This document shows positions 745 to 44,700 of a stretch of DNA of 64,000 nt, in pieces (position 1 is the stretch's first letter; each line of letters opens with the position of its first letter). The stretch is from positions 1 through 64,000 of the forward strand of contig PUQB01000754.1 of the NCBI GenBank assembly GCA_003024785.1, in the 5' to 3' direction. The notes under the pieces were generated by a model. The model saw nothing but the letters and a program-made list of their open reading frames with translations, made no database searches and was not told the origin of the DNA. Origin of the DNA: Selaginella tamariscina (lineage: Eukaryota; Streptophyta; Lycopodiopsida; Selaginellales; Selaginellaceae). The position numbers and the translations under genes are program-made.

Positions 745-771
745 ATGCATGTTGTAACTAAAGTGGGCATG
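745..771 (+). repeat. Left terminal inverted repeat, copy 1
   Basis: ATGCAT followed by GTTGTAACTAAAGTGGGCAT. Its inverse is at 17,496-17,523. Beyond the first ~27 bases the two ends share only looser similarity, such as 'ggaatattc' words. Confidence 0.8.
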
Positions 772-1275
772 ATACATGAAAATGGGAATATAAAATAAAT
801 TACTAATTAATACTTAAGTTTTAATTATTAATTAATTATTTAATTAATATGTAATTAAGCCTTAAATATTAATTAATTAATAAATTAATCCTTTAATAAC
901 CTTACTTAGTAAGGAATATTCCTAAATATTAGAATATTCATATTATCTTTGTTCTAAAAATAATTTATAATAATTAAAAATACTATCAAACATAAATACA
1001 AATGAAATCATTTTCTTATTAACATGTTAATTTATTATAAATGTTTTCTTCCTCATTTTGTCTAAATCATCACTCTCCGGATTAATCGAATCATTTTTAT
1101 GGTTATAGTTTTCTTAATACTAATGATAGTACGTGAACCTGTATTTCGGTCAATATCTTGATGTTGTTGCCACCACCTAACACTCTCACAGATGCAATTG
1201 GGAGTTGCCATCCTTGTTAATACATAAGATGTGATAAGACATGTCTGTATAAAGGCTCATTTAAAATGACGTTCC

Positions 1276-2247
1276 TTAAGAATAATATTGTAAAACCCAG
1301 TTGTTATTCTTTATTTTATAAAACTCAAAATCATGAGAAAGAAAAGCGTCAGAAAATGTTTGATACGGTGGATATTGCTCACAAAAGTTTTTGAGATTCT
1401 TCTTTCTAAGGCACGTATCCAAGTAGTTCACTAGCTCATCCATGGTATCGGTATCAGAATATGAGTCGAAAGTGATTGGATGAATACAAGCAATGTTTTG
1501 GTTGAGCATAGCCTTCTGAGGAAAGTCGTCTACCACTAAGATATGTGTGTTCTTCATTATCCTTAAGTGATTGATCTCCCCATGAAGCCCAATTAATCTT
1601 TCATTCTTGAAGAAGTACGACTTGCTTTACTTTTATATTGTGAAATTCGAGAGGTTTATAACATACTTGTTGGTTAAAAATCCAATTTTTACAAATCACC
1701 TTTTCAGCAACACTACAATGTTTCTTAAGCAAATTTAGTAGTGGTGTCAAGTTGTGAATCTGCATGCATGACCAATCCCCACAAATGCACCCATCTCCTT
1801 AAGCTTTTGAAAGAGACGGTTCAACCTTGGACGAAAAATAATATCATATCGAAATTTACCATGATAATAAATGAAATCTTTTTGTTTGATTTCTTTTTTC
1901 TTATCCTCAAGCCTTTGTCGATGAAGTAGAATACCATTGACATCCAACAACACAATATGGCCATGGGTAACATGGGGTAGCGTTGCCTCTTGAATACTTT
2001 GCAACTCACTTGTTTGCTCCCTTTCGAATTTATCAGTTGACATTATATCATTGCATATCCCTTTATCATTTAATTGTATATCATCCTTACAAGATTCAGA
2101 TATTGCAGGTGCTGAAGAAAGTGATTTCAGAACTGAAGCCAATAGAAATAGTGATGAAAAAACTGAAGTGGTCCCCATAGTAACGAAGTTTTGAGCTGCA
2201 TTATTATCCATTTCCTGCATGAACTCTGTCATTCTGACATGTGGCAT
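1276..2247 (-). pseudogene. NIF/FCP1-like HAD phosphatase domain gene in giant transposon copy 1
   Basis: Resembles the NLI-interacting-factor/FCP1 phosphatase domain, a HAD-family fold that in characterised members removes phosphate from serines, for example in RNA polymerase II tails. Reading leftward: an N-terminal part (start at 2,247), the first HAD motif VLLDVNGILL near 1,950, FRPRLNRLFQKLKEMGAFVG near 1,790, then VVDD, NQNI and DELVNYLDTCL near 1,430-1,540, which is the usual end of the domain. The second Asp of the DxD motif is Asn, as in many plant relatives, so activity is uncertain. The frame slips between the N-terminal and C-terminal parts (about 1,560-1,750), so this copy is probably non-functional. 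The same gene is in copy 2 at 28,963-29,858, so it is a fixed cargo gene of the element rather than a chance capture. Confidence 0.65.
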
Positions 2248-2498
2248 AAGAAATTTTTGCCAAACCCCTCTCTTACCTCATGGCAATGCTGAAAATCTAT
2301 GTTCAACTATTTAATTACATTTGTAAAATGATAGTTAGCTGACCTTATAATTATCAAAGTATATTATTTACCTTATTAATGTGTGACCCATGTTTGAACT
2401 AAAGCTTCATTAATCCTTGAGAATTTATTTTCTGTACAAATATAAATGAAATATACAAAAATGCCTTATGTTACACTCATTTACAACTATTCGTCACT

Positions 2499-4804
2499 CT
2501 AAGAACTCATTAACAATTCTTCTTCACTACTACCTTCTGAGTGAGGCGAAGAAGGTCTAGGCCGCTTGTGAGATGGTTCATGATCTTCCGTATCTTCTGT
2601 TGATGTTTCCATGGGTAATGGAGTGTGTGAATGATCAGTACTTCTCGAGATAACTTCTGGTCTAATATCTGATTGAAGTTCGTCCTCAGACTCCAACATT
2701 GAAACCAAATTCATCTTCAGAACTATCGCACTTCTCGGGAGGGAACTTTCTCAAATACTCCTGTATGGGTTTGTTGGGGTAGTAAATTAAGAACCTCTCT
2801 ATCCACTTGTTCAGGTCCTCAACCATGGTCTTATCCTTTTCAACGGCAAACACACATGTATCCGAAGGTAACACTCCTTCAAGACGGACCCCCTAGTGTA
2901 GTAGTCAAAAACCCATGCATCACTGTGAGGACCCCTAATCAAGTTGACGATGCTCTGTGCCGCTTGATTTGTAATGTTTGAATAACGTACATTGCCGAAT
3001 TCCCTCTTAGCTATCGGTGTATCGGATGGAGGTTCAGGCCCGCTGGAGTGCCAAACAGATGCCTGGCCAGTCATTTGGAAGTTTGAAATTGTTTGGCGCA
3101 TTCCTAACAACCAAGTGAACAACCGTATCAATGCACTTCGGATCAGCATCATTCATATAAAATCCTGTCCAACGATGTTTATTCTTCTTGGCAAAGGCGA
3201 AGGCAAAAGTATCGGTGACATGAGCAAGAATCAAGAAATAAATACCTGAAAACGTAGGTATCAGTGAAGATGCAAGCATGAATTCAATAATAAATACCTT
3301 CTTTGTACATGCTTGCACGGCTAAGTTTCTCCACCAAATCCTCTAGTGCCCTGTTCTGTCGAAGGATTTTTTGACACCCGCCGATCCATCAAACAATTGA
3401 AACGGTTTCCTACAAGCAGTGATGTTACCCCATAAAGTCTCCGAATCTAACAACAAACATCTGTAGGGCTTGTCGTGATTCGTAGCATCCTCCTTTATAA
3501 GGTTCAATTCGGTTCTCCGCTGCTGAAGGACTGCCATAAGAGAAGGCGTCATGCAATGTTCTCCTTTTTGGCGTTGGCGTGCAATAGATTCTTGCCCAGA
3601 TCTTCCGATTGATTCACCCATTCGACAAGCATATCATCGTTTGTCACATGCAAATATTTGCTGACCTCTTCGTATGTTGAAGCCGAGGTCCAACCCAGTT
3701 TGTGGCAGTGTATTCCCAACCACTCCTTGAAGTGCCTGACCGTCTTCAACTCCATTGCCTTGAGATGAAAAGGAGAGGTGGGCTGCTGTTGTTAATCTGT
3801 AGTTTGCCATCAATCACCAAATCAGCCAAGACTTCCATCTCCTCCATCGTTGTTCCATTTAAAGGCTTCAACCATGTGAGCTTGAAATCGTTGTCTACAT
3901 CCTTTGTAAGATTGAACAGACTTAGCCTTCGGCGTCTTACTGGGTTTCTTTGCAGACTTCTCTGAGGGCCCCTTCACTTGTCTGCTTCTTCTTCAGTGTT
4001 CCTTTTAAAAGGATTCCATAATCCCCAACCATTTGGCAAAGATCCTATCCTCGGGACAAGAAATCAACATCATCAAAAAGGATGTTTCCTTCCCCCACCT
4101 GGGCAAAATCAACTGCTACAATTTCTTCAACTCTCTGAAAAAAAAGACAGATTAATATACCGGCGAGATAAATCCCGCCCAAACAATTTGCTTACCCGGT
4201 ATTCGCAGATTGTGTATTCCTGCATAGCTCTTTGTGGTCGCTGAAGAGATTCCCACACGGCTCGCGTGTGTTTGAACTTCTCCCATATTTTGCTGTTTGT
4301 AGTGGTTGGTGTCGCAGCGTCCCATTCCGCCGATAACTTATGGTACTGCTCGATTGTGAGATTCGGCTTAGCTAAAAACGCCGATCTTTTTGTCAGCTTC
4401 TCACGGGTATGCTCGAAAGTTTTGTTGCCATCGTTCCTTTGTTGTGTTCATCGAGAAGTCGTTGGGCTGCCGTTATTATGTGCTGGCCACTAATGATGTA
4501 GTACTTGATTGATTTTCTATTCTCGTCTGAATCTTCATGATTTGTTCTGGTGTTGTGATCCACACTTTGTCACGCCTTTGTTTCTTTCGTAAGTATGGCA
4601 CAAAACAGCATTATGTGGAACGGTGTAAGAATTGTCGTCCTTCATCTTCTCCATGAGCTCAGCTACACGTTCCTGGTTGAGTGGCATGTAATTGAAGTTT
4701 GGGTTGACGCTGCAATACTTAACCCTACACTCATAAATCCTATCATCCAACATCATTTCCTTGTGGCTTATTGCAACATGGGATGTCACATGTGCAGCTG
4801 ACAA
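2499..4804 (-). pseudogene. ParB-like plus DNA-methylase-like gene, giant transposon copy 1
   Basis: A leftward gene in several pieces. The N-terminal part (4,804-4,535) contains NFNYMPLNQERVAELMEKM, which resembles the start of a ParB/sulfiredoxin-type domain. The middle (4,500-3,340) is basic and unrecognised. The C-terminal part (3,300-2,690) has AWVFDYYTRGSVLKECYL followed by VFAVEKDKTMVEDLNKWIER, which resembles the 'DxFxGxGS ... xxxxExD' SAM-binding end of DNA N4/N6 methylases. The tail (2,714-2,499) is acidic and Ser-rich. ParB-like plus methylase fusions are known in phages and mobile elements, which supports the joint call. I see no DPPY-type catalytic motif, so it may be inactive or another SAM-fold protein. 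The frame changes several times and introns are possible. Confidence 0.4.
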
Positions 4805-5408
4805 AACAACTGATGATGATTTTCTTTTATGATCGTGTTGAACCGTAAAATCCTACATCAAGCCCGTATTAAGGGTCTACCAGAATAAGATAGAGAAAAG
4901 ATTAGTCATCAGAAGGTCGGGAAAAGGATAAGGATGGCAAGGTGTATAGTAGGCAGCAGTACTATGGATCCCGTCACAGTACTGAGAAGAAGATCAGTAT
5001 ACTACATAACAGAAAGACGAGTAAGAGATAGACATATTGAGAGAGAAAGGAAACTTATATTATGTTCGTACACGGCACATGGTACAAAATAACAATATAC
5101 TCGGGATGCTCTTATAGTCCTAATCTGGTCTATTTATACCCATACTCTAGGTCCCGTACTAGCAGTTATCACAACTGCCTCCCAACCTTATCCATTCTAT
5201 TACTGTAACTCCTTATCCTTATCCAAAAATGCCGTACTCCGCTGGTATCATATTGCGGTGATGACCTGTATTACGGTATTGCGTTAGTAACTCGTATTCC
5301 GATATATCCTTCTCACTCTCGGTTTTCCACAATATATATATTTTTGATATTTTCCTATTATATTGCCCATGAAATAACAAGAAATTCTACCAATGTCTAA
5401 CTATACTC
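4805..5408. other. Spacer between cargo genes
   Basis: No convincing coding sequence or repeat. Probably intergenic or intronic sequence between the ParB/methylase-like gene and the next upstream leftward gene. The matching part of copy 2 falls within or beside the N gap. Confidence 0.4.
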
Positions 5409-6215
5409 TTAACAATCCGAATCAACATGTGTGATCCCCGATTGATGCTGTTCTAATGTTCTTGGCACATTCTTCCAGCTCCCAAAGTTTTTTAAGCAAA
5501 TTGAATGTGATCTGTAAAGAACTTGAGACCAAGCCACCCTCTCAATCTCCCTAATGATGTCGCTGTGTTCTTCTTTAATATGAAGAGGGACGATTGCTCC
5601 ACTTGTGGATGTTCTGTATTGTGAAGCAATCTCTGCTGATAATACACCTACTCGATGAGTCTAAAGATCTTCGAAGTAGACATTTAATTGGATCCCCTCC
5701 ATAGATGGGCTTTCGTTGAGTTGAAGAAGAACTCCATGATCAACATCATTAGTGAACACGTGAACATCATTATCCACAAGTCGACAAGACCACCCAAGAT
5801 TAATGTTGTAACTTGGCAATCTCTGGATCCGAGAACGTGACATTGGATAGAACAAGGCATATGTGTCGAACATCGTTCAATCTGGGTTCGCAACATACTT
5901 TCGGATGCTTGACTAGCACATCTACTTTCCATTGTTTTACTTGTCCATGTGATGTGACAAAGGTTAGTTTGACAACAACCATGGTTGCTCCAATGCGCTT
6001 CTCGTTTAATGGCCAAGTTGATTCCAGAAATCCCCCTGCCCATCTCTTCTCCTACTCTCGTCTTCAATGTCACCTCAATTCCACATCTGAATACAAAAAT
6101 GATTAGTACATATCCGAATATAACAGATTTTATTTTAATTTTTACCCAGAATTTGACGCGACGACTCCATATTAATGACTGAATCTCCTTGCTTAATCAA
6201 ATCGTCCTTCTGCAA
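5409..6215 (-). CDS. Unknown spliced gene in giant transposon copy 1
   Basis: I do not recognise this family. Reading leftward, an exon near 6,205-6,146 encodes KDDLIKQGDSVINMES and ends at a GT donor. A 'tattcag' acceptor near 6,090 begins an exon with CGIEVTLKTRVGEEMG, followed by KRIGATMVVVKLTFVTSHGQ and VLVKHPKVCCEPRL. The last part reads VYFEDLQTHRVGVLSAEIAS, then EEHSDIIREIERVAWSQVLY, and ends with DSDC and a stop at 5,409. The reading frame slips at least once. The homologue in copy 2 (33,898-34,620) shares the exon-intron plan, which argues for a real gene. It starts just left of the palindrome array and is the first gene of the leftward set. Confidence 0.4.
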
Positions 6216-6519
6216 ATTAATACACTATGAATACAAATCATATAAAAACCCAATATACAAAAATAATACACTGATAAATTTACATAAACCCTGCTTTGTC
6301 TTAGAGAGAAGTGGACGGGATTAACTGTCCAAAGCTCACTTTGTGATAGTGCAAAAGACAGATAACATTTGGTTTTAGAACCACCACAAATGTGAACTTT
6401 AGACAATTTTACATAGTTTACTGGCTTTTACTCAAAATATTATGATAAGATAATTAAAAGTAAATAAAATAAGGTATGCAACTTATATATACTAATACAC
6501 ATATATATTCACATGTAAG

Positions 6520-7260
6520 GTGGGGCAGGATTATCTCGCCACCCCTTCTATGCCTCCTGAAATGGTGGGCGGGATTAATCTCACCACCTTTCTGGAGCCC
6601 TTGAATGGGTGTGCAGGATTAATCCCGTCACCCTTCTCGGTCTCAAAGAGATTATTTGGCACACCCCTTCAGTGGCTCCAGAAAGGTGGCGGGATTAATC
6701 TTGCCCACCATGTAAGGGATGGTGAAATGGATCTCGCCACCCTTCTCAGTCCCCTCCATTAATATATTGTAAACCTTCTACGTCTCAGACAGAGACATTT
6801 GGGATTGGTTTGACTCACTAATGAAGGAAAAAAAAAAAGGGTGGCGGGATTCATCCCTTCACCAAGCATAAAAGGGTCGGCGGGATTAATCCTGTCGCAC
6901 GCCCATGCCCTGCGCGGAATGGGGCGAGATTAATCCCGTTGCCTAGGCCCCTCACACAGCTCATTGGCGGCGGGATAAATCCCATTGGATTCCGTGTAGG
7001 GCATGGGTGTGCGGCAATATTAATCCTGCCGCCTAGGCCCTGCACGTAGGCCATGGGCAATGGGATTAATCCTGCCACCCTCCACGCAAGCCATGGGCGG
7101 CGGGATTAATCCTGCCGCTCATGAGGCTAACCGAATAGCCTGCATGAAGGGCGGAGATTAATCCCGTTGCTCATGACCTGCATGAAGGGCCTCGGTGGCG
7201 GGATTAATCCCGCCGCTCATGAGGGTAACGGATGAGCGGCGGATTAATCCCGCTGCTACA
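6520..7260. promoter_or_regulatory. Palindrome array A, copy 1 (decayed)
   Basis: Many variants of the palindrome GGCGGGATTAATCCCGCC, such as 'gggcgggattaatctcacc' near 6,566 and 'ggcgggattaatcctgccgc' near 7,097. It lies upstream of the leftward gene set. Most copies carry G-to-A or C-to-T changes relative to array A of copy 2. The role is unknown. Candidates are a binding array for the transposase or for another protein. The reading frames across it (GGINPA, AGLIPP) are by-products of the repeat. Confidence 0.8.
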
Positions 7261-7640
7261 TACACACACATATATATGTATATGTATATGTATATCGTAT
7301 GTGTGTGCTAAAAAATTAAATTATACAGATACACACACACACACACATATATATATATGTATATATATGTATATACAGGAGTGTGCGTGTGTGTGCGATA
7401 GATAGATAAATAAATAAAATTATAAGATACTGATACACATAATATATGTATGTATAATGTATATAGGTATATACATATATATGTGTGTATGTGTGTGTGT
7501 GTGTGTATCGTGTGTATGCGTGTGTGAGTGAAACAAATAAAATCATACAGATAAACATGAGTGTGCATGTGTGTGCAAGAGATAAAATTAATAAATTAAT
7601 AAAATTATATAGATACACAAACACACACACACACACACAG

Positions 7641-7674
<34 letters not shown>

Positions 7675-8148
7675 AGAGTGTGCGTGTGTGTGCGAGAGAT
7701 AGATAAATAAATTATATTATTAAGATACACACACATATAAATATATATGGGAATAAAAATAAATAAATAAACTCAGGAGTGTGTATGTGAGAGAGAGAGA
7801 GATCTCACCTATGTGTGAGAGAGAGGGAGATTTCATAGTCGCCGCTTTGCTTCTTGAAACCCTAAGAATATACCTAAACCCTAAAAGGAATAGAATATAT
7901 ATTAACCTTAATCAAATAAGAATATACTTAAACCCTAAAAAAAATAAAAATAGATTCGCCTTAAACGAATATTCTTTTATTATATTATCAGCATGTGCGT
8001 GTGCGTGGGTGTATCACATACACCCCCAAGAATAAAAATCATGCAGGGGTTTAACATGTGTGTGTCCATGAGAGTGTTAAAGTTTCATGTGTAGCAATAC
8101 ATATATACACACATAGTATAGACATACATACATATTAGTACATAATAT
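7261..8148. repeat. Microsatellite belt (TG/CA/TA) in copy 1
   Basis: Dense (TG)n, (CA)n and (TA)n tracts plus repeated words such as 'gtgtgcgtgtgtgtgcgaga' and 'aaataaaattata'. These form larger irregular repeat units of about 150-250 bases. The matching belt in copy 2 is 36,510-37,700. No gene is supported here. Confidence 0.85.
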
Positions 8149-8480
8149 TAGAGAGACAGAGTACATATTATGAATGAGAGAAGAGAGACACTACATATTA
8201 TGGATCATGCATGGTGTGTATGTTTGAGAGAAGAGAGATAGTACATATTAACATGGATCATGCATGGTGTGTATGTTTGAGAGAAGAGAGACAGTACATA
8301 TTAACATGGATCATGCATGGTGTGTATGTTTGAAAGAAGAGAGACAGTACATATTAACATGGATCATGCATGGTGTGTATGTTTGAAAGAAGAGAGACAG
8401 TACATATTAATATGGATCATGCATGTGTGTATGTATGAGAGAAGAGAGATAGGCTACATATTATGAATCATGATCATGCA
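8149..8480 (+). repeat. 53-bp tandem repeat
   Basis: The word 'ggatcatgcatgg' recurs at 8,202, 8,255, 8,308 and 8,361, and once slightly changed at 8,414, a regular 53-base step. Each unit also has 'gagagaagagaga' and 'gtacatatta'. Copy 2 has only scattered related units (38,120-38,590), so the array grew or shrank after the copies split. Confidence 0.85.
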
Positions 8481-9837
8481 TGGTGTGTATGTATAAGAGA
8501 AAGAATTATGCATGGTGACACTGTGTATGTATGAGTAACAAATTAAAATCGTACACATTGCATATATTAATACACATATATACATACACACGTTTATACA
8601 CACAGACATACATATATATTACATGTGTAAATTCAATATGTTACATACACATAGACCGAGTACATATAGATCATACATGCGTTGAACATGATGTTTTTCA
8701 ATAAACAAGCAACATATTTATCAAGTTTGGTTTAGGGCAATGTGCATGTGTGTGCATATGTGTCTAATGCAAGTGCACGTGTATATATAAATTTATAATT
8801 GTGTTTATATATGTGTGCAAAACAAACATCGAATAATTAAGAAAATATATTAATAAACACACTATGAACATATTTTAAATTATACATAATAATATATGAT
8901 TTTATCTCATATGTAGTTTTAATAATATATATTAATTTAATATTGATAATAAGGTTTAACACTGGAATATTCTTGAAATAATAAGAATTTAACTGAGAAA
9001 ATCCCATTAATATATACAAATGTAGATTAAGTATTAAAATAATTAACTAAATTAATTATGATAATCATGTTTAATATTGGAATATTCTTTGAATATTAAG
9101 AAAATAATAAAGAATATCTCATTAATAGTAGGAAATGTAAATTAATTACTCGAGTAATTAAGAAAATAATATTAATAAACAGGCTATGAATATATTTTAA
9201 ATAATACATAATAATATATCAGTTTATTTATTGTATATATATATATATATATATAATAGAAAGTTAATAATATATATTTGAATATTAAGAATGTAGAATA
9301 ATTACTAAAATTTCGTAATATTAAATAGGTTGAATCACTTAAATGACATTAAATGCACACTCATTGGAATTGAAGAATATATATGTCAGAGTGTCGGTTA
9401 TTTGTGTAAACTCATCTTAAATTTTATTTTCTGTTCTTTTCAAAAAATTTGAATTTCTGACATAAGTATTGTTGGTCTGACATGTAAATTTGAAAATGCA
9501 TTTAATTTCCCACTCAAATTCAGATCTAGTTCTTTCTCTAATAAGAGTTTCTTCATTTCTGTATTTTTCACTCTTCAGATCTTTTTTTTTCTTTATAGTG
9601 ATCAGCTCAGGAGCGACATTAAATTGGGTGCTATTGTTTATAAGAAAGCACGGCGCCTTCAGTGTTGTTTACAAGTAAGTATTATAAACAAATTTAGATA
9701 TACTTATAAAGATTCACTTTCTTACATTCTCTCTTAAAATTAAAATTTAGGGGTTTAGGAATGCATTAGGATTACAATATATTCCGTTAGGGATTTATTC
9801 TGTTTAAATATCCTTCTAACTTAATATTCTTGGTTAG
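8481..9837. other. AT-rich spacer in copy 1
   Basis: No gene supported. Contains scattered 'ttaatattgataataaggtt' type repeats, a (TA)n run near 9,235 and a segment at 9,480-9,680 conserved with copy 2 (39,870-40,065) that includes 'catggcgccttcagtg'-like text. That segment could be a 5' exon or leader of the transposase gene, ending at a possible GT donor near 9,674. Confidence 0.4.
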
Positions 9838-10208
9838 CCGGGGCGGCAAGATTAATCCGGCCATTTCTTTTTCGCTTCTTAGAAGAGGTGGCAGGATTAA
9901 TCTCGTCACCATCTCTTTGATAGCCATGGCAGAATTAGTCTGGGCAATGCTTCTCCGCCTTTGAAAAAGAACGGCGAGATTAATCCTGCCGATAACTCTC
10001 TCAACTGATAAAGAGTTACCTGAATTTATTAGAAAGAGTTGTCGGCGGGATTAATCTCGCCACCACTTCCCTATTTTAAATATTTGTGCGCAGGATTTAT
10101 CCCGAGATCTCTTTGAAATCATAGCTTCGGAGAGAGTTGTGGGTGGGATTAATCCCATCACCTATTCCGTGTTGTAAGAGTTGTGGGCGGGATTAATTGG
10201 GATTAATC
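9838..10208. promoter_or_regulatory. Palindrome array B, left part, copy 1
   Basis: Decayed copies of the GGCGGGATTAATCCCGCC palindrome. The last one is split by the nested element at 10,209. The array continues at 13,518-13,805. In copy 2 the whole array (40,225-40,930) is uninterrupted and lies just upstream of the transposase. Confidence 0.8.
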
Positions 10209-10534
10209 CACCGGAAAATGTAAAATAAACAAAGCAAAAAAACTATGCCTAATTTTATAAATACTAGGGTAAAAAAATTTGACTAACATACTAGGGGAAG
10301 TACTAAGGGTCCAAGAACAAGGGTTGGTTTTTGGGTTTGTAACATGTATAAAATTATGTTATAATTCATTAAAATATAGTGAGCTAACGGGATCCTAGAA
10401 TATGCTTTAGGGTTCTTTCTGTGAAGCGGTGGAGCGTGCTCCGCAGATCCGGCGGCATGGGTTTGGCTCTCCATATGGCGTTGTGCAATATCAACGGTGG
10501 CCACTTAATCTGGTGAGTGGATTCATGGTTATAC

Positions 10535-10690
10535 ACTACCCCAAGAATATGCACCGATCATCATCCCAGCGAATACTACACTCGTAATGAAGCTCTCTTG
10601 TTTAGCGGACAGTTTCCACACCATCTGGACAGCAGGACCAACAAATGAGAGGAGCATCATCTCCATGGCCTTGGCCATCCATGACATGCC
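10535..10690 (-). pseudogene. MFS transporter (SVOP/OCT7-like) fragment inside the CACTA-like element
   Basis: Leftward text encodes WMAKAMEMMLLSFVGPAVQ and then TSVVFAGMMIGAYSWG. This matches the first transmembrane helices of SV2/organic-cation-transporter-like proteins (plant OCT7 type), which move small organic solutes across membranes. Only one exon-sized piece is present, opposite in direction to the neighbouring MECR piece, so it is a captured fragment and not a gene. The rightward frame across the same bases has no known family. Confidence 0.65.
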
Positions 10691-11048
10691 TGTGTACAGA
10701 TTTCTATGCAATGCCAACAAGGATAAGCTGTGCAATGGGTGGTCTAAAGTCCATGGACAGCCCCGGAGAAGACCCAATTTCGATCGTCCCAGTAGAACAG
10801 AGAGAATCAACAAGATGGTAAGATCAACCACATTTATCGATGTCCACAAGTAAGTGTGTATTGTAGATATACAAGTTACAGATTCAATTAATTATATGAA
10901 AATGTGGTGTAGATGTATATTATATAAACATAAACCACAGGGTCATCAACATATGTATATTGTGTATATAGATACACACACATAAATTCGTGTATGTATG
11001 TATATACATACATGTTTCTTTTATACAAATGGATGTTTATATAAAAAG

Positions 11049-12385: not shown

Positions 12386-12439
12386 GTGAGTATTTCATAT
12401 ACGAACAGATGTAAGCACACACGTGTGTGTGTGAGTGTG

Positions 12440-12801
12440 TGGGGAAACCGACCCCTCCCCCACCTCCGCCTCCGGAGCCACTCACTGGAGTGGTCAAGTA
12501 CAAGCTGTCCGAGTCCAGCACTCTTGTTATCTGGAAAGGGGATATAGGGCTCTGGTTCATCGATGGACAAACAGATGCAGTCGTAAGTTTTTTGTTCTTC
12601 ACACACACACCCACACACACTGTATGTATGGACAGTTCAGACAGTTATAATTCCTTATAAGCAAATTATCATCTAAGTCTATATATGCATTTATACGTCT
12701 TGATACGTCTTATTTGATTGTTTATTTTGCTCATTGTTTGGATGATGTTTCACTCACAGGGCCGCTTTGAATCTGGCAACATCAGAAGGCATTAAGTACA
12801 T
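12440..12801 (+). pseudogene. Macro-domain protein fragment inside the CACTA-like element
   Basis: The first piece (about 12,470-12,582) reads VKYKLSESSTLVIWKGDI then DGQTDAVV and ends at a GTAAGT donor. The second (12,760-12,801) reads AALNLATSEGIKYM after a 'cactcacag' acceptor. Both resemble the macro (ADP-ribose-binding) domain: 'GDIT...DAIVN' and the later 'A...A...gIkyIaFP' helix. The middle of the domain is missing, so it is a fragment. It follows the MECR piece in the same direction and could be spliced onto it in a chimeric transcript. This assignment rests on short stretches. Confidence 0.5.
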
Positions 12802-28411: not shown

Positions 28412-28438
28412 ATGCATGTTGTAACTAAAGTGGGCATG
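28411..28438 (+). repeat. Left terminal inverted repeat, copy 2
   Basis: Identical to the left end of copy 1, including the ATGCAT in front. Confidence 0.8.
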
Positions 28439-31740: not shown

Positions 31741-31744
31741 CCAG

Positions 31745-34620: not shown

Positions 34621-34902
34621 TATGAATACAAATCATATAAAAACGCACACACACTTGTATAAACCCGAATATACAAAAAATACACAGAGAGAAGTAGACG
34701 TAATTAACTGTCCGAAGCTCACATTTGTGCTAGTGCAAAAGAAAGATAACATTTCGTTTTAGAACCACCACAAATGTGAGCTCTGGACAGTTTTACATAG
34801 ATTCCTAGCTTTTACTCGAAATATTATAATAAGATGATAAAAGTAAATAAAATGAGATATGCAACTTATATATACTAATACACATATATATTCACATGGA
34901 AG

Positions 34903-36510
34903 GTGCGGCGGATTAATCTCGCCACCCCTTCAATGCCTCCTGAAAGAGTGGGCGGGATTAATCTCGCCACCTTTCTGGAGGCCTTGAACGGGAGTGCGGA
35001 ATTAATCTTGCCACCCTTCTCGGTCTCAGAGAGAACTGGGCAGGATTTATTTCTCACACCCCTTCAGTGACTCCAGAAAGGGGCGGGATTAATCTCGCCC
35101 ACCATGTAAGGATGGTTAAATGAATTTCCCCACCCTTCCCAATTCTCTCCATTGGTATGTTGAAAACCTTCTACGTCTCAGACAGAAACGTTTAGGATTG
35201 GTCCGACTCACCAATGGAGAAAAAAGCGAAGGGTGGCGGGATTCATTCCTCCAACAGGCATTGAAGACTCGGCGGGATTAATCCCGCCGCCCAGGGCCTT
35301 CACTTCCCTATGCGGCGGGATTAATCCCGCCGGACGCCAATTCCTGCGCGGAATCGGGCGGGATTAATCCCGCCGCCTAGGCACTTCAGGCAGGCCAATG
35401 GCGGCGGGATAAATCCCGCCCGATTCGCGCAGGGAATTGGCGTCCGGCGGGATTAATCCCGCCTCCCAGGCCCTTCACTCGGGCCTTAGTCGGCGGGATT
35501 AATCCCGCCGAACGCCAATGCCCTGTGCGAAATCTTGCGGGATTAATCCCGCCGCCTAGGCCCTTCAGGCAGGCCAATGGCGGCGGGATAAATCCCGCCC
35601 GATTCCGCGCAGGGCATGCGTACGCGGCGGGATTAATCCCGCCCACCATGTAAGGGATGGTGAAATTAATCCCACCACCCTTCTCAGTTCCCTCCATTGG
35701 TATTTTGTAAACCTTCTCCGTCTCAGACAGAGTTAGTCGGGATTGATTCAACATACCAATGGAGGAAAAAAAAAGGGTGGCGGGATTAATCCCGCCACCG
35801 GCAATGAAGGTTCGGAGAGACTAATCCCGCCGCCCTCTCGTAAATCATGCGCTCACACATATATATTGGCTGCGGCATTTTGAACAGGGATGGGTGGGGG
35901 CGGGATTAATCCCGCCGCTTATATCCTGCGGAAGTGCCTGAGCGGCGGGATTAATCCCGCCGCCCTCCGCGAAGGGCATGAGCGTGGGGCGGGATTAATC
36001 CCCGTTCATGTCCTGCGTGAATTCCCTGGGCGGCGGGATTAATCCCGCCGCCTTACGCGCAGGACATGTCATGCAGGCTCTTCGGTTAGCCTTCCGTGCA
36101 GGATCTTTCATGCAGGCTCTTCGGTTAGCCTCATGAGCGGCGGGATTAATCCCGCCGCCCATCCCCTGTAAATGCCCTGCGCGGAATCCGCGGGATTAAT
36201 CCCGCCCATTAGGGCCTTCACACAGGCCATTGCCGCGAGATAAATCCCGCCGCATTCCGCGCAGGGCATGGGTGAGCGGCGGGATTAATCCCGCCGCGAG
36301 GCCCCTCACGCAGGCCATGGGCGGCGGGATTAATCCCGCCGCTCTTCGGTTTGTCCTAGAGCGGCGGGATTAATCCCGCCGCCCATAGCCTGCGTGAAGG
36401 GCCTCGGCGGCGGATTAATCCCCCGCCATGGCCCCAACCATATAGCGGCGGGATTAATCCCGCCGCCAGGCCATAAACCTATAGCGGCGGGATTAATCCC
36501 GCCGCTCGAG
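34903..36510. promoter_or_regulatory. Palindrome array A, copy 2
   Basis: By eye about 18 exact or near-exact GGCGGGATTAATCCCGCC palindromes between 35,270 and 36,505, plus variants with ATAAAT in the middle (35,403, 35,580) and decayed ones at the left edge. Spacing is usually 35-60 bases. The spacers contain 'gccctgcgcggaatc' and 'aggcaggcca' words in both orientations. The array lies immediately upstream of the leftward cargo genes. Each unit is two inverted GGATT half-sites in a GC clamp and could fold into a hairpin. Confidence 0.9.
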
Positions 36511-36582
36511 GGGCTTAGCGTGTGTGCGAGAGATAAAATTAATAAATAAAAAAATTATACAGATAAAAAACACACATATATA

Positions 36583-36629
<47 letters not shown>

Positions 36630-36972
36630 GTATGTATAGGAGTGTACGTGTGTGTGCAAGAGATAGATAAATAAATAAAATTATACAGTACTGGTACACA
36701 TAATATATGTGTGTACATAGGTATATATATGTGTGTATATGTATATCGTGTGTATGCGTGTGAGCGAAACAAATAAAATCATACAGATAAACAAACACAC
36801 ACACACACATATATACACAGGAGTGTGCGTGTGTGCGAAAGATAAAACTAATAAATAAATAAAATTATACAGATAAACACACACATATATATGTGTGTAT
36901 ATAGATATAAACCCATATGAATATATAAGCATATATATAAACTAGTGTTGTATACTATTTGTTAATGCATTG

Positions 36973-37008
<36 letters not shown>

Positions 37009-37700
37009 AAGCAGTGTGCGTGTGTGTGGGAGAGATAGATCAATAAAAAAAATTATATAGATACTGGTACACATAATATATGTATGTATATATATATAGG
37101 TATATATATATGTGTATATGTATATTGTGTGTATGCGTGTGTGAGCGAAACAAATAAAATCATACAGATAAACAAACACACACACACACACATATATACA
37201 CAGGAGTGTGCGTGTGTGTGCGAGAGATAAAACTAATAAATAAATAAAATTATACAGATAAACACACACATATATATATGTGTGTATATAGATATATAAC
37301 CCATATGAATATATAAGCATATATATAAACTAGTGTTGTATACTATTTGTTAATATGCATTGATTATATATATATATATTATGTGTGTGTGTGTGTTGTG
37401 TGTGTGTGTGTAAAGCAGTGTGCGTGTGTGTGGGAGAGATAGATCAATAAAAAAATTTATAGATACTGGTACACATAATATATGTATGTATAGTATATAG
37501 GTATATATATATATGTGTATATGTATATCGTGTGTATGCGTGTGTGAGCGAAACAAATAAAATCATACAGATAAACAAACACACACCCACACACACATAT
37601 ACATACACAGGAGTGTGCGTGTGTGTGCGAGAGATAAAACTAATAAATAAATTATACGCACACTCCTATACATACATACATACACACACACACACAGATC
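36511..37700. repeat. Microsatellite belt in copy 2 with larger repeat units
   Basis: (TA)n, (TG)n and (CA)n tracts organised in at least three units: 'atacagataaac' occurs near 36,781, 37,163 and 37,566, each followed by 'aacacacacac' and 'caggagtgtgcgtgtgtg'. A tandem repeat of about 385-400 bases. No gene. Confidence 0.8.
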
Positions 37701-40224
37701 TCACCTGTGTGCACAGCCGCCGCCGCCATTTCACAGCCGCCGCCTCTTGAAACCCTAAGAATATACCTAAACCCTAAAGGAATTAAATATATATATATTA
37801 ACCCTAATAGAATATTCCTTCTGAGAATATACTTAAACCCTAAAAAGAATAAAATATAGATTCGCCCTAAACGAATATTCTTTCATTATATTATTAGCGC
37901 GTGCGTGTGCGTGGGTGTATCACATACACCCCAAAAATATAAATCATGCAGGGATTTAACATGTGTGTGTCCATGAGAGTGTTAAAGTTTCATGTGTATC
38001 AATACATACATACACATTGCATATATTAATACACATAATATATACATACACACGTGTATACACACAGACATACATACATATTACATGGGTTTAGGGTTTA
38101 GGGTTTAGGGTTTTGGATTTAGGATGGATCATGCATGGTGTGTATGTATGAGAGAAGAGAGAGTGTTGAAAAATTATTTTTGTACACATTGCATATATTA
38201 GTACACATATATACTTACACATATTATACACAGATATACATACATAGTATATGAGAGAAGAGAGACAGTACATATTATGGATCATGCATGGTGTGTATTA
38301 TACACACAGACATACATACATATTAGTACATAATATTAGAGAGACCGAGTACATATTATAGATCATGCATGGTGTGTATGTTTGAGAGAAGAGACAGTAC
38401 ATATTAACATGGATCATGCATGGTGTGTATGTATGAGAGAAGACAGAAAGTACACATATATACATACAGAGTACACATATATACATACACACGTGTATAC
38501 ACACAGACATACATACATATTACATGAGTAAATTCATTGTGTTACATATTAGGGTTTAGGGTTTAGGATGGATCATGCATGGTGTGAAGAGAGAGTGTTG
38601 AAAAATTATTTTTGTACACACATGTATACACAGGGTTTAGGGTTTGCTCCCAACAACTTAATATAAATATTACACATGTAAATTCAATGTGTTACATACA
38701 CACAGATTGAGTACATATATCATACATGCGTTGAACATGATGTTTTCAATAAAGAAGCAACATATTTCTTCAGTTTGGTTTAGGGTTGTGCATGTGTGTG
38801 CATATGTGTTTTTGTAAGTTCTTGTAATGCGTGTGTAAATTTATGATTGTGTTTATATATGTGTGCAAAACAAATCGAATAATTAAGAAAAATATTAATA
38901 AACACTATGAACATATTTTAAATTATACATAATAATATGATTTTATCTAATATATAGCCATATATAGTTTTAAATATATATTAATTTAATATTGATAAAA
39001 AGGTTTAACATTGAAATATTCTTGAAATAATAAGAAATTAATTGAGAAAATCCATTAATATATACAAATGTAAATTAAGTACTCAAATAATTAACTAAAT
39101 TAATTATCATAATCATGTTTAATATTGGAATATTCTTGGAATAATAAGAAAATAATAAAGAATATCCCATTAATATAAAGAAGATTAATTACTCAAGTAA
39201 TTAAGGAAAGAATTAATATATATATTATAAAACTATATATGACTATATATTAGATAAATGATGTATTATTATGTATAATTTAAAATATGTTCATAGTGTG
39301 TATTAATTTAATATTGATAATAAGGTTTAACACATGAATATTCTTGAAATAATAACAAATTAATTGAGAAAATCCCATTAATATATACAAATGTAGAATA
39401 ATTACTGCAATAATTAAGAACAAGACTAATTTAATTATGATAATCAGGTTTAATATTAGAATATTCTTCAAATATTAATAAAATATTAAAGAATATCCCA
39501 TTGATACTAGGAAATGAAAACTAAATACTCGAGTAATTAAGAAAATAATAATAATAAACAGACTATGAATATATTTTAAATGATACATAATAATATATCA
39601 ATTTATTTATTGTATAAGTATATTTATATATATATATATATATATATAAATATACTTGAATACTAAAATGTAGAATATAGTCTAAAATTTCGTAATATTA
39701 AACAGCTTGAATCACTTGAATAACATTAAATGCAATTTTAAAATACTCATTGGAACTGGAGAGTATATATGTCAGAGTGTCGGATATTTGTGTCAACTCA
39801 TCTTAAATTTTATTTTCTGTTCTTTTTAAAAAATTTGAATTTCTGACATATGTATTGTCGGTCTGACATGTAAATTTGAAAATGCATTTAATTTCCCACT
39901 CAAATTCAGATCTGGTTCTTTCTCCGGCAAGGGTTTCTTCATTTCTGTATTTTTCACTCTTTAGATCTTCTTTTTTCTTCATAGTGATCATCTCAGGAGC
40001 GAGATTAAATTGGGTGCTATTCTTTATAGGAAAGCACGGCGCCTTCAGTGCTGTTTACAAGTAAGTATTATAAACAAATTTAAAAATACTTATAAAGATT
40101 CACTCTCTTACATTCTCTCTTAAAATTACAATTTAGGGGTTTAGGAATGCATTAGGATTATAATATATTCCGTTAGGGATTTATCCCGTTTAAATATCCT
40201 TTTAACTTAATATTCTAGGTTAAC
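37701..40224. other. AT-rich spacer of copy 2 with telomere-like runs
   Basis: No gene supported. Holds imperfect 'ggatcatgcatggtgtg' units (38,120-38,590), short TTTAGGG runs and 'aatattgataataaggttta' repeats. A segment at 39,870-40,065 is conserved with copy 1 and ends near a possible GT donor at 40,061; it may be a leader exon of the transposase. Confidence 0.45.
38091..38122 (+). repeat. Interstitial telomere-type TTTAGGG run
   Basis: Three to four units of GGGTTTA, decaying to 'ttttggatttagg'. Shorter runs are at about 38,549-38,567 and 38,634-38,652. TTTAGGG is the common plant telomere repeat. They lie inside the transposon, next to the ATCATGCATGG units. Confidence 0.8.
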
Positions 40225-40930
40225 CGGGCGGCGGGATTAATCCGGCCATTTCTTTTTCGCCTCTTCGAAGAGGTGGCGGGATTAATCCCGCCACCATCTC
40301 TCGGGCAATGCTTCTCCGCCACTGAAAAAGAGTGGCGGGATTAATCCCGCCGATAACCTTCTCAACTGATGAAGAGTTACCAGAGTTGTCGGCGGGATTA
40401 ATCCCGCCAACCATTTTAGGAGGCAGGGAAGGGGTGGCGGGATTAATCTCGCCACCACATCCCTGTTTTAAGGATTTGGGGACAGGATTTATCCCGAGAT
40501 CTCTTTGAAATCATAGTTTTGGAGAGAGTTATGTGCGGGTTTAATCCCGCCACCCATTCCCCGTCGTAAGAATTGTGGGCGGGATTAATCCCGCCTTGGA
40601 CTCCCTCCGAAGGAAGAGCCGGCGGGATTAATCCCGCCGCCTCTTCCTTCGGGGAGTCCGGCGGGATTAATCCCGCCGACTCTCTCCGAAGGGGTGAGTC
40701 CGGCGGGATTAATCCCGCCGACTTCCTCGTCGGAGAGAGTCGGCGGGATTAATCCCGCCGGACTCCCCCGAGGAGGAAGAGGCGGCGGGATTAATCCCGC
40801 CGGCTCTTCCTTGTCGGAGGGAGTCCAAGGCGGGATTAATCCCGCCGACTCTCTCCGAAGGGGTTGAGTCGGCGGCGGGATTAATCCCGCCGACCGTTCC
40901 TCGTCGGAGGGATTAATCCCGCCCATCAGT
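40225..40930. promoter_or_regulatory. Palindrome array B, copy 2, upstream of transposase
   Basis: By eye about 11 exact GGCGGGATTAATCCCGCC palindromes plus variants, the densest run being 40,575-40,925 at about 40-base spacing. Spacers alternate 'tcctcgtcggag' and 'ctctccgaagggg' words, which pair with each other. The array ends about 150 bases before the transposase ATG, a promoter-proximal position. Confidence 0.9.
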
Positions 40931-41077
40931 TGTATTAATCAAACATGAGATATTATCTCTAAACATAATTATGTATTATTGCATATGCATATTATTAAGT
41001 AACCGTAATTCAGATTTCTTAGAAATATTGCATAAACAGATATCATAAATAATACAATTATTTATGTGCAGGACAAT

Positions 41078-44000
41078 ATGTTTAATACTGGAGATAAAGT
41101 ATGTCTTCTTCGGAACAACGAGATAGTTGGCACTGGAACTGTGGAAGTTCGAGATAATAATGCATCATGTCACAATATTGCCCAAGGATCTTGTGTGTAC
41201 GTATGGGTGAACACCATTTACAAGCATGTTGAGGTTCTGGGAATGGAATTTGAGGAGGGTTCTCCTGTATTGTGGAATTTGGATGAAGTCAAGGCTGACA
41301 CAGAATATGCAGAGTCACAAACAAATAGTAGCACGAGTTTACCAGATGATGGCTTGCCTTGTGATGGATGAGGTGATTCTCTTTCTTCGTGAGATTGAAG
41401 TCGGAAGAGGCATCATCACAGCTATAAATCCAATGGAAGCAGTGTCAGAAGAGAAACTAGGGTCCGACTTCGTGGGTGTAGTTGTGACAGAGGTTTCACC
41501 TAATGGCACATTGTATCCTGGATCCCTCGTGAGGTGGCGAACATCTGAATTAAGACGGCAAGATGGTTCAACATATTCTGGGTTGGATTTCAATAATAAC
41601 AACCCGGAAGAACAACTCATATTTGAAGAGGTTCCTTGCATTGGTCCTATTGTAAGAAAAAGGCGATTCATGGGTTGTAGATCTTCCCCTGCAAGTTTCA
41701 GCAAGAGGGTAAAGATGGATCCTACATCTTCCGAAAGTGTTACGAGCATTTCCACGATTGACTGTTGCAAGAAGAAGTGTTGTCAGATGGCAGACCGGAA
41801 TGAAATTACCCAATGTAGACATGTCTTTCGTATGCTCACCCAAAAGCAAAGGCATGAGTTTGTATATGCTGCACTAACTGGGTGTATTGATGGAATGGCC
41901 TCGGACACAGGTTATCAGAGTACATCCATGGTATTTAATAAGGTGGCCATCTGCTTCAAAGCTTGGTACAGTATATACGGGATCCCAAAGACCACGTTCT
42001 ACCGTCGGAGGGATGAGTGGCTAGATGGAGCGCGAACCTCAGTTCATGGGAACACTCGCTTGGTCAAAACCCGCTCTCACATCATGGCAGCCATAGAGAT
42101 ACTCAAGGCTTTTGTGGAAGCAAATGCAGACAGGATGCCTCACAAATGCCGAACCACAAATGCAGGGGTCAGGGAAAATCTCAAGGTTTTGCCTTCAATC
42201 TACACTCAATTGAAACTGTGTGAACATGTGAACAAGTGCCTCAGTTTGATGGGGCTCCAAGCAATCTGCACTGGTACCTTCAACAACATATGGAATACTC
42301 ATTTTAAGGATGTGGAGATTGCAAAACACTCTAGCTTTTCTAAGTGTGACACTTGTACATCATTGAAGGCTGCAGAGGCTTGTGCAAAAACCTTGGTGGA
42401 GATCACTACCATTCAAAGGAAGATGGAGGCCCACATGATTGCACAACAAACTTGCCGGTCTCAGTACTATGCACACCGCATGCTTTCTGTGTCACGCCCA
42501 TCAGAGTACCTGTGCTTGATCCATGACAAGATGGATCATTCAAAGACCAGCATTCCAAAGCTCTTTGCAACACCAAAGTGCCTTGGAAATGTCATGAAAC
42601 TTCCGATTTCATTGACAGGTGTGCTAACACATGGACACGGTTGTGAGTCATATGGACACTTTTCACTTCCACATTGGTCTAGCGACTCCAATTTCACTAT
42701 TGGGTCGTTAGCCATGTGTTTCAGAAACCTTGAAGCCCACTCACAGACAAGTCCTATCAGTGATCTCAAAGTGAAGAAACAACACCTTCAACCTTTACAT
42801 AATGCTCTCATGAACACGTCTGCACTTGAGGCTACTTGGGAATATGAGAGGCATTGTCAACACCTGCACAAAAAACAGATGGCCCTGTTGAGAGTTCTGG
42901 TTCAGTGGAGGGATCTAGCTCAAATAGTGTACATGTGTCCTCAACATCAAATAAGCTTCCTCGTCATTTGCTTTTACAGATGGATAATTGTGCAGGCGAG
43001 AACAAAAATAGGTAAATCATTTTACTTAAGGGTTTCTCAAGCTCATACTTACTTTTATTTTCTAGATATGTGCTAGCATACTTGTCAATGCTTGTTGCCA
43101 AAGGTGTGTTTGAAACAATCACGCTCAGTTTCCTTATGGTTGGTCACACTCATGAAGATATTGATGCGTTCTTCAGCAAGGTCTCCAACTCTACAAAAAG
43201 GACAAGTGCACTTACCTTACCGCATATGATGAATCTTTTTGAAAATTGCATCTCCAAAAAAAGTTGTGCTTTGCTTGTGACTGAGGTGCCAGACTTCAAA
43301 AAATTTCTCAAGGAGTATATAAAAGAAGGGAGTGATTCTTTAGTTGGTCACCTTGTGCCGCTACAATTCTTTTTCTCCATACGAGATGGTATACCTATTA
43401 TGCAGTACAAGTTACGGCCATCAGAGCAGGAGTGGTTACCGAAAGAGGGCTTAATGCTCTTCAAAAGTGGAGAGGATGGAAAGCCACTTCTCCCAGAAGG
43501 ACAACCAGACCCTATTCCATTGAGTGCCCAGCTCAAGGAACAAGAGGTTATTATTGATGGCATCAAAAAATATGTGGCATGGGTTCAAAAATCGATGCCA
43601 AAGAATTCTGATAAGGCAACTGGTTACTCAGAACTATATAAGCATGTGGTCAACTATTGGGAGACTGTTGTTCGAGAGTTGGAAGGGCCTACTGTCACAA
43701 GTACAGAATTGCAACACCCTTTCTGGCCTAAAACAAGGTGGCGAGAGGAGATTGAAATGACATCACTGAGCATAGACGACATAGAAGCCAGTAGTGATGT
43801 GGAAGTGCAAACCCCACACTTTGTTGGACAAAGGAACCAAAAACCTAAAGCATACTTTGATTGCTGCAAGGATCTTCAAAAACTAATGATGGTTCTCATT
43901 ACTCCAGATGCGTCATATAATCAGCCTATTTGGATGGGTCAAATTATCGACACACCTGAAGTAATCACAAAAAATAGTATTGTTAAGGTTGCATGGTTCA

Positions 44001-44194
44001 AACCACAAAAAAGGCGACACGAGAAGGAGAGCGAAAGATATAATGGATGCCTAGAGAAAACATGGTCTCCCAATCAAAAAGACCCAGCATGTTTTATAAA
44101 TGTTAAATCCATTCGATATGGGTGGATGTCAAGAAGCGTTGATAAAGTCACGATTAACAAAACTGCAAGGGAATGTATGTTTTCTGAAGCTTAA
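41078..44194 (+). CDS. DDE-like (DUF7869-type) transposase, copy 2
   Basis: Probable transposase of the giant element. The ATG at 41,078 follows a 'tttatgtgcag' acceptor, so an upstream leader exon is likely. Order: N-terminal domain (NTGDKVCLLRNNEIVGTG, VYVWVNTIYKHVEVLG) like the transposase-associated domain of plant elements; a Cys-rich part (CCKKKCCQ); a helix-turn-helix-like region (IYGIPKTTFYRRRDEWLDGA); a zinc motif (SKCDTCTSLKAAEACA); and a DDE-like RNase H fold with Asp in IHDKMDHSKTS, MDNCAGENKNR and VGHTHEDIDAFF. A 54-base intron (43,012-43,065) splits the second Asp block. The C-terminal exon (43,066-44,194) is fully open. The main frame (41,374-43,011) is open apart from slips near 41,310 and 42,860. 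The fold and role are inferred from motif spacing. Confidence 0.65.
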
Positions 44195-44673
44195 AGCAAT
44201 TACAAAATTATAAAATATCATATATTTAATATTCATAATTATTATAAACTCTTTAATAATAGTACCAAATTGTATACTTAACTATATAAATTTAAAAAAT
44301 GATATGGAAGATTGACTATATTATTATAGGATTTTATATATATATTATTACTACTACAAATTTTTAATTAATAATGTTATATTTAAATATTAATATTTTA
44401 ATAACAACATCAATATTTATATAATGTACCTCTTATGCTCTTCCTTAATTGTTATATTAGGCAATATATTATATAATTTAATACTTCTACTTTTATAATG
44501 TTATTAATTTTTGTTCAATGAATGCTATAATTTATTAAAGGGTAGAATACAAAATAGAATATTCTAAAGAATATTCTCTTTTCAAACATATATTCTAAAG
44601 AATATTCCTTTAATATTAGAAAATGCTAATTAAATAGCTAAAATTGCTAATTATTAGGAAATGGGACTATAGC

Positions 44674-44700
44674 CATGCCCATTTTAGTTACAACTTGCAT
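44674..44700 (-). repeat. Right terminal inverted repeat, copy 2
   Basis: CATGCCCATTTTAGTTACAAC followed by TTGCAT. Homology with copy 1 stops here. Confidence 0.8.

What the first reader, a model, noticed from the sequence alone, without database searches (positions are those of the whole stretch)
751..44694. Giant DNA transposon with a phosphatase-like and a ParB/methylase-like cargo
Two copies of a ~16.5-kb unit share inverted ends (GTTGTAACTAAARTGGG), gene order and palindrome arrays. Besides a DDE-like transposase they carry a NIF/FCP1-type phosphatase gene, a gene with ParB-like and methylase-like parts, and an unknown spliced gene. Because both copies hold the same cargo, it belongs to the element. 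I know of no described family with this combination, but I could not search.
Basis: partly seen in the sequence, partly recalled or inferred. Interest (0 to 1): 0.9.

Follow-up and report, generated by a model that had tools for sequence, protein, structure and literature searches.

The report
Giant plant transposon with ParB-like cargo
A roughly 14-kb cut-and-paste DNA transposon, present in many copies in what is probably a spikemoss genome, carries a phosphatase-like gene, a gene with a weakly ParB-like part and two arrays of an 18-base palindrome that look like binding sites for one of its own proteins.

Summary
The ends occur 3,263 times in the 300.7-Mb host assembly, 0 times in the reversed control. 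Of 28 facing pairs among the first 100 listed ends, 24 are 10-29 kb (median 14.4). True ends lie 6 bp further out, with a 4-bp target-site duplication in 11 of 22 copies. The 16 interiors examined all hold DUF7869 transposase and NIF/FCP1-type phosphatase sequence; 15 hold the ParB-like gene. The ParB-like gene and first transposase part show purifying selection; the other parts do not clearly. Some copies are nearly identical: recent movement. New here: two arrays of GGCGGGATTAATCCCGCC, 16-48 sites per copy, upstream of the ParB-like and transposase genes, absent from the rest of the window. Corrections: the methylase part has no profile support; no separate 'unknown spliced gene' was found. 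ParB-plus-methyltransferase accessory proteins on giant transposons are already reported in algae (PMC12477816, passage). Best mechanism, inferred: the ParB-like protein binds the palindromes and counteracts silencing, as VANC does for VANDAL elements. New variant of a known kind.

The parts
745..17523 (.). Element A, whole transposon (ends ATGCAT|GTTGTAACTAAAGTGGG ... CCCATTTTAGTTACAAC|ATGCAT); few intact palindromes, no matching TSD
28412..44700 (.). Element B, whole transposon, 4-bp TSD ATAT; contains 924 Ns at 31745-32668 and a repeated stretch at 32669-33904
1009..2277 (-). NIF/FCP1-type phosphatase gene of A (broken by indels); motif DVNG where FCP1 has DxD
28670..29796 (-). NIF/FCP1-type phosphatase gene of B (broken by indels)
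   Evidence: tblastn with frames of copies L023 and L027
2505..6106 (-). ParB-like gene of A (broken by indels); about 1,000 codons when pieces of copies L015 and L025 are joined, with two short GT-AG introns; C-terminal part of unproven (methylase-like) kinship
30069..34531 (-). ParB-like gene of B, interrupted by the N gap and the repeated stretch
6568..7214 (.). Palindrome array 1 of A, upstream of the ParB-like gene; mostly degenerate sites
13553..13795 (.). Palindrome array 2 of A, upstream of the transposase
34951..36503 (.). Palindrome array 1 of B (GGCGGGATTAATCCCGCC, mostly 43-46 bp apart), upstream of the ParB-like gene
40230..40923 (.). Palindrome array 2 of B, upstream of the transposase
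13908..16998 (+). DUF7869 transposase gene of A (broken by indels)
41036..44191 (+). DUF7869 transposase gene of B: pieces 41036-41359, 41211-43076 and 43016-44194; DDE-like motifs HDKMD, QMDN, GHTHED

Best explanation
It is a recently mobile cut-and-paste DNA transposon family of about 14 kb, probably autonomous, in a lycophyte-like genome (probably Selaginella). It has 23-bp inverted ends, makes 4-bp target-site duplications and carries three genes: a DUF7869 DDE-like transposase on one strand, and on the other an NIF/FCP1-type phosphatase and a roughly 1,000-residue protein with a ParB-like region. Shown: boundaries, TSDs, copy number, near-constant cargo, purifying selection on the ParB-like gene and the first transposase part, and two arrays of an 18-bp palindrome in front of exactly these two genes. 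Inferred: the ParB-like protein (or a partner encoded by the element) binds the palindrome as a dimer, loads densely on the arrays, and keeps two promoters of the element open against host silencing, as VANC proteins do at motif arrays of VANDAL elements. The phosphatase would act locally in the same process, for example on RNA polymerase II or chromatin proteins; that step is a guess.
For: Ends and copies. TSD: 11 of 22 copies have an exact 4-bp duplication outside the 23-bp ends, against a mean of 1.05 and never 11 in 20,000 re-pairings of the same flanks. Cargo: phosphatase and transposase sequence in 16 of 16 interiors, ParB-like gene in 15 of 16. Selection: dN/dS 0.31 and 0.24 for two parts of the ParB-like gene and 0.30 for the first transposase part, the lowest of the six frames in each case, and the fewest stop gains (4, 1 and 2 of 4,550, 5,078 and 7,700 codon comparisons). 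Recent movement: 0 substitutions in 1,176 bases (L011 against element B) and 1 in 1,977 (L019 against L011). Arrays: 16-48 sites per copy at up to 4 mismatches, commonest spacing 44-46 bp; 69 sites in the window, all inside the two elements; 83 of 85 half-sites lie in a full-length site, as dimer binding predicts. ParB-like region. Precedents: VANC (PMC5735166, passages); ParB plus methyltransferase accessory protein (PMC12477816, passage).
Against: No binding, expression or methylation data. No copy read is open through the whole ParB-like gene. The ParB score is low (21.7) beside true phage ParB proteins tested the same way (76-121), and two windows of the same gene without the motif reach 17.5 and 18.2, about the best shuffle. 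Pfam, PHROGs, NCBIfam and PDB sequences give no ParB hit. The two structure models are too poor to use (mean pLDDT 46 and 39). Selection on the phosphatase (0.47; another frame gives 0.34) and on the C-terminal part (0.57; another frame gives 0.51) is not separated from control frames; the second transposase part (0.47) is not either, and its own frame does not have the fewest stop gains (5, others 2-7). Whether the palindrome occurs outside the elements genome-wide could not be tested because the genome search did not complete. One of 16 copies lacks the ParB-like gene, though it could be moved in trans.
Confidence: 0.45

Rival explanations
1. The palindromes are binding sites of a host transcription factor, for example an E2F-like cell-cycle factor (GGCGGGA core), and only serve as strong promoters; the ParB-like protein does something else.
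For: The arrays sit upstream of two of the genes. The half-site GGCGGGA resembles an E2F core (recalled).
Against: Half-sites rarely occur outside full-length sites (2 of 85), and canonical TTTSSCGS sites are few (5 in the window, 3 of them in the elements). None of the 69 palindromes lies in the 31 kb of the window outside the elements.
Confidence: 0.2
2. The ParB-like protein with its palindrome arrays is a partition or clustering system, like ParB/parS, that tethers or condenses copies, perhaps an excised circular intermediate, rather than an anti-silencing system.
For: A palindromic site in arrays plus a ParB-like region is the ParB/parS layout (parS recalled as a 16-bp palindrome).
Against: I saw no ParA-type ATPase among the shared ORFs (by eye; not all were scanned against families). 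The arrays lie before two genes. No evidence of an extrachromosomal form was looked for or found.
Confidence: 0.12
3. The cargo genes are passengers captured from the host (Pack-type capture) with no role for the element.
For: Large DNA transposons capture genes; the phosphatase resembles a plant FCP1-type family (recalled). Its selection signal is not separated from a control frame. One copy lacks the ParB-like gene.
Against: Phosphatase sequence in 16 of 16 and the ParB-like gene in 15 of 16 interiors, in the same order except in one rearranged copy; dN/dS 0.24-0.31 in the ParB-like gene with very few stop gains.
Confidence: 0.18
4. The palindrome arrays act as DNA structure (cruciforms or hairpins) that promotes replication, recombination or amplification of the element, without a specific binding protein. 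(Raised from 0.10 to 0.12 on re-check, because the conservation argument against it is weaker than first written.)
For: A 401-base part of array 1 of B folds far better than shuffles (z -17).
Against: The inner GATTAATC keeps its base in 417-453 of 455 sites, which suggests sequence recognition; but all positions keep it in at least 393, and the sites were chosen by likeness to the consensus, so this is weak.
Confidence: 0.12

Closest known systems
Sola1-1_Ec32 and other algal giant transposons with ParB plus DNA methyltransferase accessory proteins (PMC12477816, passage; Iyer 2011 and Petroll 2025 are cited there, not seen)
   Same: Giant DNA transposon; accessory gene of about 1,000 codons on the strand opposite the transposase with a ParB-like part; its authors propose that such proteins bind and modify their own transposon. 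Sola elements also have 4-bp TSDs (recalled).
   Different: Here the transposase matches Pfam DUF7869 (whether this equals Sola was not testable); a methyltransferase part is not supported and its catalytic motifs are not recognisable; a phosphatase and palindrome arrays are added; the host is a land plant (inferred).
VANDAL/Hiun elements with VANC anti-silencing proteins, Arabidopsis (PMC5735166, passages)
   Same: Element-specific short motif arranged as tandem arrays in non-coding regions, differing in number between copies; an element-encoded protein is the (there shown, here proposed) binder.
   Different: VANDALs are MuDR-type elements; no VANC sequence was compared here; the motif here is an 18-bp palindrome; binding and demethylation are not shown here.
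KDZ (Kyakuja-Dileera-Zisupton) and other fungal transposons with TET/JBP genes (PMC12730594, abstract and passages)
   Same: DNA transposons with an added gene thought to counteract silencing.
   Different: Zisupton has 8-bp TSDs (passage), here 4 bp; no TET/JBP gene seen here; transposase family not matched to KDZ.
NIF/FCP1/SCP phosphatases (Pfam PF03031)
   Same: Pfam NIF hit over 159 residues, E 5e-9; VVDDSP motif present.
   Different: Nucleophile motif reads DVNG, so the second aspartate of DxD (recalled) is asparagine; activity uncertain.

Membership tests
Cut-and-paste TIR DNA transposon | Inverted ends, fixed boundaries, TSD | tested here: met
   same ends in the copies read; 4-bp TSD in 11 of 22
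Cut-and-paste TIR DNA transposon | DDE/D transposase | tested here: inconclusive
   DUF7869 E 1e-26. Of 8 homologues, P0003-P0007 show HDKMD, LDN and GHTHED; P0002 shows variants of the first two; P0001 is truncated; P0008 matches only partly. The AF2 model of P0007 is too poor to prove the RNase H fold
Sola superfamily | 4-bp TSD (recalled) | tested here: met
Sola superfamily | Transposase clusters with Sola1/2/3 | not testable with these tools
   no Sola profile or reference sequence at hand; PMC2727372 not held
KDZ superfamily | 8-bp TSD (Zisupton) | tested here: not met
   8-bp match in at most 1 of 22 at any offset tried
ParB/Srx superfamily | ParB fold with GxxRxxA-type motif | tested here: inconclusive
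   KYYIINGQHTITAAQ; hhalign score 21.7, 0 of 200 shuffles; no Pfam ParBc hit; fold not modelled
DNA N6-adenine/N4-cytosine methyltransferase | Profile similarity and DPPY / FxGxG motifs | tested here: not met
   41 of 120 shuffles score as well (72 of 200 with a smaller profile); the stretches that would correspond read LLLDSET and FDYCTRGS (by eye); positive controls score 201-232
NIF/FCP1 phosphatase | Pfam NIF above cut-off | tested here: met
   36.4 bits, cut-off 21.8, frame of copy L027
NIF/FCP1 phosphatase | Catalytic DxDx(T/V) motif | tested here: not met
   DVNG in the copies where this stretch is in frame; motif definition recalled
VANC-type anti-silencing system | Element-specific motif arrays in non-coding DNA | tested here: met
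   (within the window; a genome-wide count did not complete)
VANC-type anti-silencing system | Protein binds motif and lowers DNA methylation | not testable with these tools
   needs experiments

The most novel reading that the evidence does not exclude
A land-plant transposon has turned a prokaryote-type ParB/parS-like module into a self-recognition system: its ParB-like protein loads on tens of 18-bp palindromes in front of its own transposase and its own gene and, together with an element-encoded FCP1-type phosphatase, overrides host silencing, which explains its spread to hundreds of copies.
Probability: 0.25. Interest if true: 0.85.

Novelty: new variant of a known kind. Interest (0 to 1): 0.6.

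Why it matters
How transposons recognise and protect their own copies in plants is open outside the VANDAL case. Here a candidate protein and a clearly defined, dense, palindromic candidate site sit in the same recent, high-copy element, so the question can be tested with one binding assay and one methylome. It would also extend ParB-like transposon accessory proteins from algae to a vascular plant and give the Pfam family of unknown function DUF7869 a role as a transposase.

Tried and rejected
Methylase identity: Pfam and NCBIfam scans at E up to 10, a PHROGs scan, tblastn in phages, and hhalign against 2 and then 11 phage methyltransferases gave nothing above shuffles. Homologues of the ParB-like protein: none in two searches of the large protein collection (the first could only see proteins of 0.55-1.75 times 478 residues), no credible one in phages (best E 2) or PDB. 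Structure: the transposase homologue P0007 with 10 sequences (mean pLDDT 46) and one 124-residue window piece of the C-terminal part (mean pLDDT 39) were too poor, so no fold search was made. E2F sites: rejected as sole explanation. A separate unknown gene: not found. Frameshifts as real decay: partly rejected. Over the comparisons there are 421 indels against 1,691 substitutions, but in the closest copies indels outnumber substitutions (1 substitution and 5 indels for L019, 0 and 2 for L011) while stop gains are rare, which fits uncorrected long-read errors in a repeat; older copies may be truly broken. Host identity: the plastid psaA reading frame has many serines where leucine or phenylalanine is expected (heavy C-to-U editing, comparison recalled); with TTTAGGG repeats and introns of 53 and 61 bp this points to Selaginella. 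S. tamariscina with a genome of about 301 Mb is recalled, not confirmed; PMC10541799 (passages) only says that such an assembly exists. Repbase and Dfam could not be searched.
Full report
What was checked. The 17-base end motif lies at all four stated places. In the host assembly (300.7 Mb, 1,391 contigs) it occurs 1,654 times forward and 1,609 reverse, and 0 times in the reversed-pattern control. The tool lists only the first 100 places. In that list 28 neighbouring ends face each other: 24 are 10-29 kb apart (median 14.4 kb), one is a 233-bp miniature copy and three are 44-87 kb apart. If those 100 are typical, 48% of the ends belong to full-size pairs, which gives roughly 780 copies and 11 Mb, or 3-4% of the genome. 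This is an extrapolation from contigs in list order.

Boundaries. Twenty-two copies were compared (10 read whole, 9 read at the ends, the two in the window and the miniature copy). In 19 of 22 the motif is preceded by ATGCA plus A, C or T, and in 19 of 22 the right end is followed by NTGCAT; the others differ in one or a few bases. Taking these six bases as part of the element, 11 of 22 copies have an exact 4-bp duplication outside; re-pairing the same flanks gives 1.05 on average and never 11 in 20,000 trials. Element B has it (ATAT), element A does not. The other copies may have recombined or mutated. The window elements are therefore 745-17523 and 28412-44700.

Cargo. Of the 24 full-size pairs, 14 were read inside (10, 3, and C42 over all but its last 350 bases); with elements A and B this makes 16 interiors. 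Phosphatase and transposase sequence was found in 16 of 16, the ParB-like gene in 15 of 16. The copy without it (C42) is shorter. Copy C27 is rearranged and has only the second transposase part, and C1:2368600 holds extra copies of the cargo. Otherwise the order is phosphatase (minus), ParB-like gene (minus), array 1, AT-rich middle, array 2, transposase (plus). Inverted ends around an unrelated interior were not seen among these 16; the 233-bp copy looks like an internal-deletion form.

Genes. Transposase: Pfam DUF7869, E 1e-26 for the C-terminal half of B; eight homologues with E at or below 0.001 in the large protein collection, seven of them at 34-51% identity and the eighth at 26%. P0003-P0007 conserve HDKMD, LDN and GHTHED, which I read as a DDE-type triad; this is inference, because the model was poor. 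No paper in the library mentions DUF7869. Phosphatase: Pfam NIF, 36.4 bits against a cut-off of 21.8, with DVNG in place of DxD. ParB-like gene: read from L025 it has a possible start MESSSNSG and two GT-AG introns of 61 and 53 bp (by eye, no cDNA); joined from pieces of L015 and L025 it is about 1,000 codons, and no single copy read is open throughout. Its middle part aligns with ParB proteins around NGQHTITAAQ; the hhalign score of 21.7 is not reached by 200 shuffles (maximum 17.5), and among 98 windows of element and homologue proteins the five best all cover this region (20.3-21.7). Two windows from the N-terminal part of the same gene come next (18.2 and 17.5), and the best window of another protein scores 15.3. 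True phage ParB proteins score 76-121 in the same test, so the kinship is remote at best. The C-terminal part has no such support as a methyltransferase (41 of 120 shuffles do as well), and the stretches that would be the catalytic motifs read LLLDSET and FDYCTRGS. If it was once a methyltransferase it is probably inactive.

Selection and age. Over 10-12 copies the reading frames give dN/dS of 0.31 and 0.24 for the two parts of the ParB-like gene and 0.30 for the first transposase part, each the lowest of its six frames, with 4, 1 and 2 stop gains against 6-27, 4-24 and 6-14 in the other frames. The phosphatase (0.47) and the C-terminal part (0.57) each have a control frame that is lower (0.34 and 0.51). 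The second transposase part (0.47, 11 copies) is no lower than its control frames (0.39-0.66) and has 5 stop gains against 2-7; it has few substitutions. Frames of a non-coding stretch give 0.57-1.14, so a value near 0.5 is not evidence by itself. Some copies differ by 0 substitutions in 1,176 bases or 1 in 1,977: recent movement. In these closest copies one finds more indels than substitutions although stop codons are rare, which suggests assembly errors in the repeats and may explain many of the broken frames; over all comparisons there are 421 indels and 1,691 substitutions.

Arrays. The palindrome GGCGGGATTAATCCCGCC occurs 50 times in the window at up to 2 mismatches, 0 expected, and 69 times at up to 4, all inside the two elements. 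Each of 12 copies has 16-48 sites, mostly in two arrays with a commonest spacing of 44-46 bp; single sites also lie inside the ParB-like gene (4162 and 31724). Over 455 sites the inner GATTAATC keeps its base in 417-453 and the outer positions in 393-441; since sites were chosen by likeness to the consensus, this overstates conservation. Of 85 half-sites, 83 lie in a full-length site. Site numbers differ between copies, as VANC target repeats do in VANDAL elements (PMC5735166, passages). Element A has 1 perfect site of 24, element B 27 of 45.

Interpretation. Arrays in front of the ParB-like gene and the transposase, paired half-sites, and selection on the ParB-like gene make an element-encoded DNA-binding protein with its own sites the best reading, and anti-silencing the most likely use, because a close functional precedent exists. 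A ParB-plus-methyltransferase accessory gene opposite the transposase in an Ectocarpus Sola1 element, with a similar proposal by its authors (PMC12477816, passage), makes this a member of an emerging class rather than something without precedent. What is new here, so far as my searches show, is the transposase family, the phosphatase, the palindrome arrays, the land-plant host and the absence of recognisable methyltransferase motifs. Binding, silencing and phosphatase function are untested.

Noticed in passing
window 31745-32668 and 32669-33904: 924 Ns followed by a second copy of about 1.2 kb of the ParB-like gene (95% like 29985-31204): probably an assembly join error rather than a real duplication.
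   Followed up: partly
window 1-744 and 27656-28411: The left flanks of both elements are alike (within a 1,097-bp alignment at 95.6%), while the right flanks differ; element A lacks a TSD. Either a segmental duplication or a recombinant copy.
   Followed up: partly
palindrome sites in 12 copies: The commonest changes are the symmetric pair G5 to A (43 of 455) and C14 to T (61 of 455), the CCG (CHG) cytosine of each half, more often than C to T at the CpG cytosines C3 and C15 (17 and 25). Could record CHG methylation or inherited variants.
   Followed up: no
L047 (G000:C1:1442841-1443673): A 233-bp miniature copy (245 bp with the extended ends) with TSD TTAA.
   Followed up: partly
L011 copy, element positions 8146-8262: Plant telomere-type TTTAGGG repeats inside the element.
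   Followed up: no
window 26055-27161 (-): Open frame of 368 codons with an F-box hit at or near cut-off, between the two elements.
   Followed up: no
window 61352-63814 (-): Pieces of a Ty3/gypsy-like retrotransposon (integrase-like and reverse-transcriptase-like frames; by eye, no family search).
   Followed up: no
window 60774-61088 and 52369-53300: A 39-bp tandem repeat, and a tandem repeat of about 315-bp units.
   Followed up: no
L049 (G000:C536): psaA frame with many serines in place of leucine or phenylalanine: a heavily edited plastid genome, pointing to Selaginella.
   Followed up: partly
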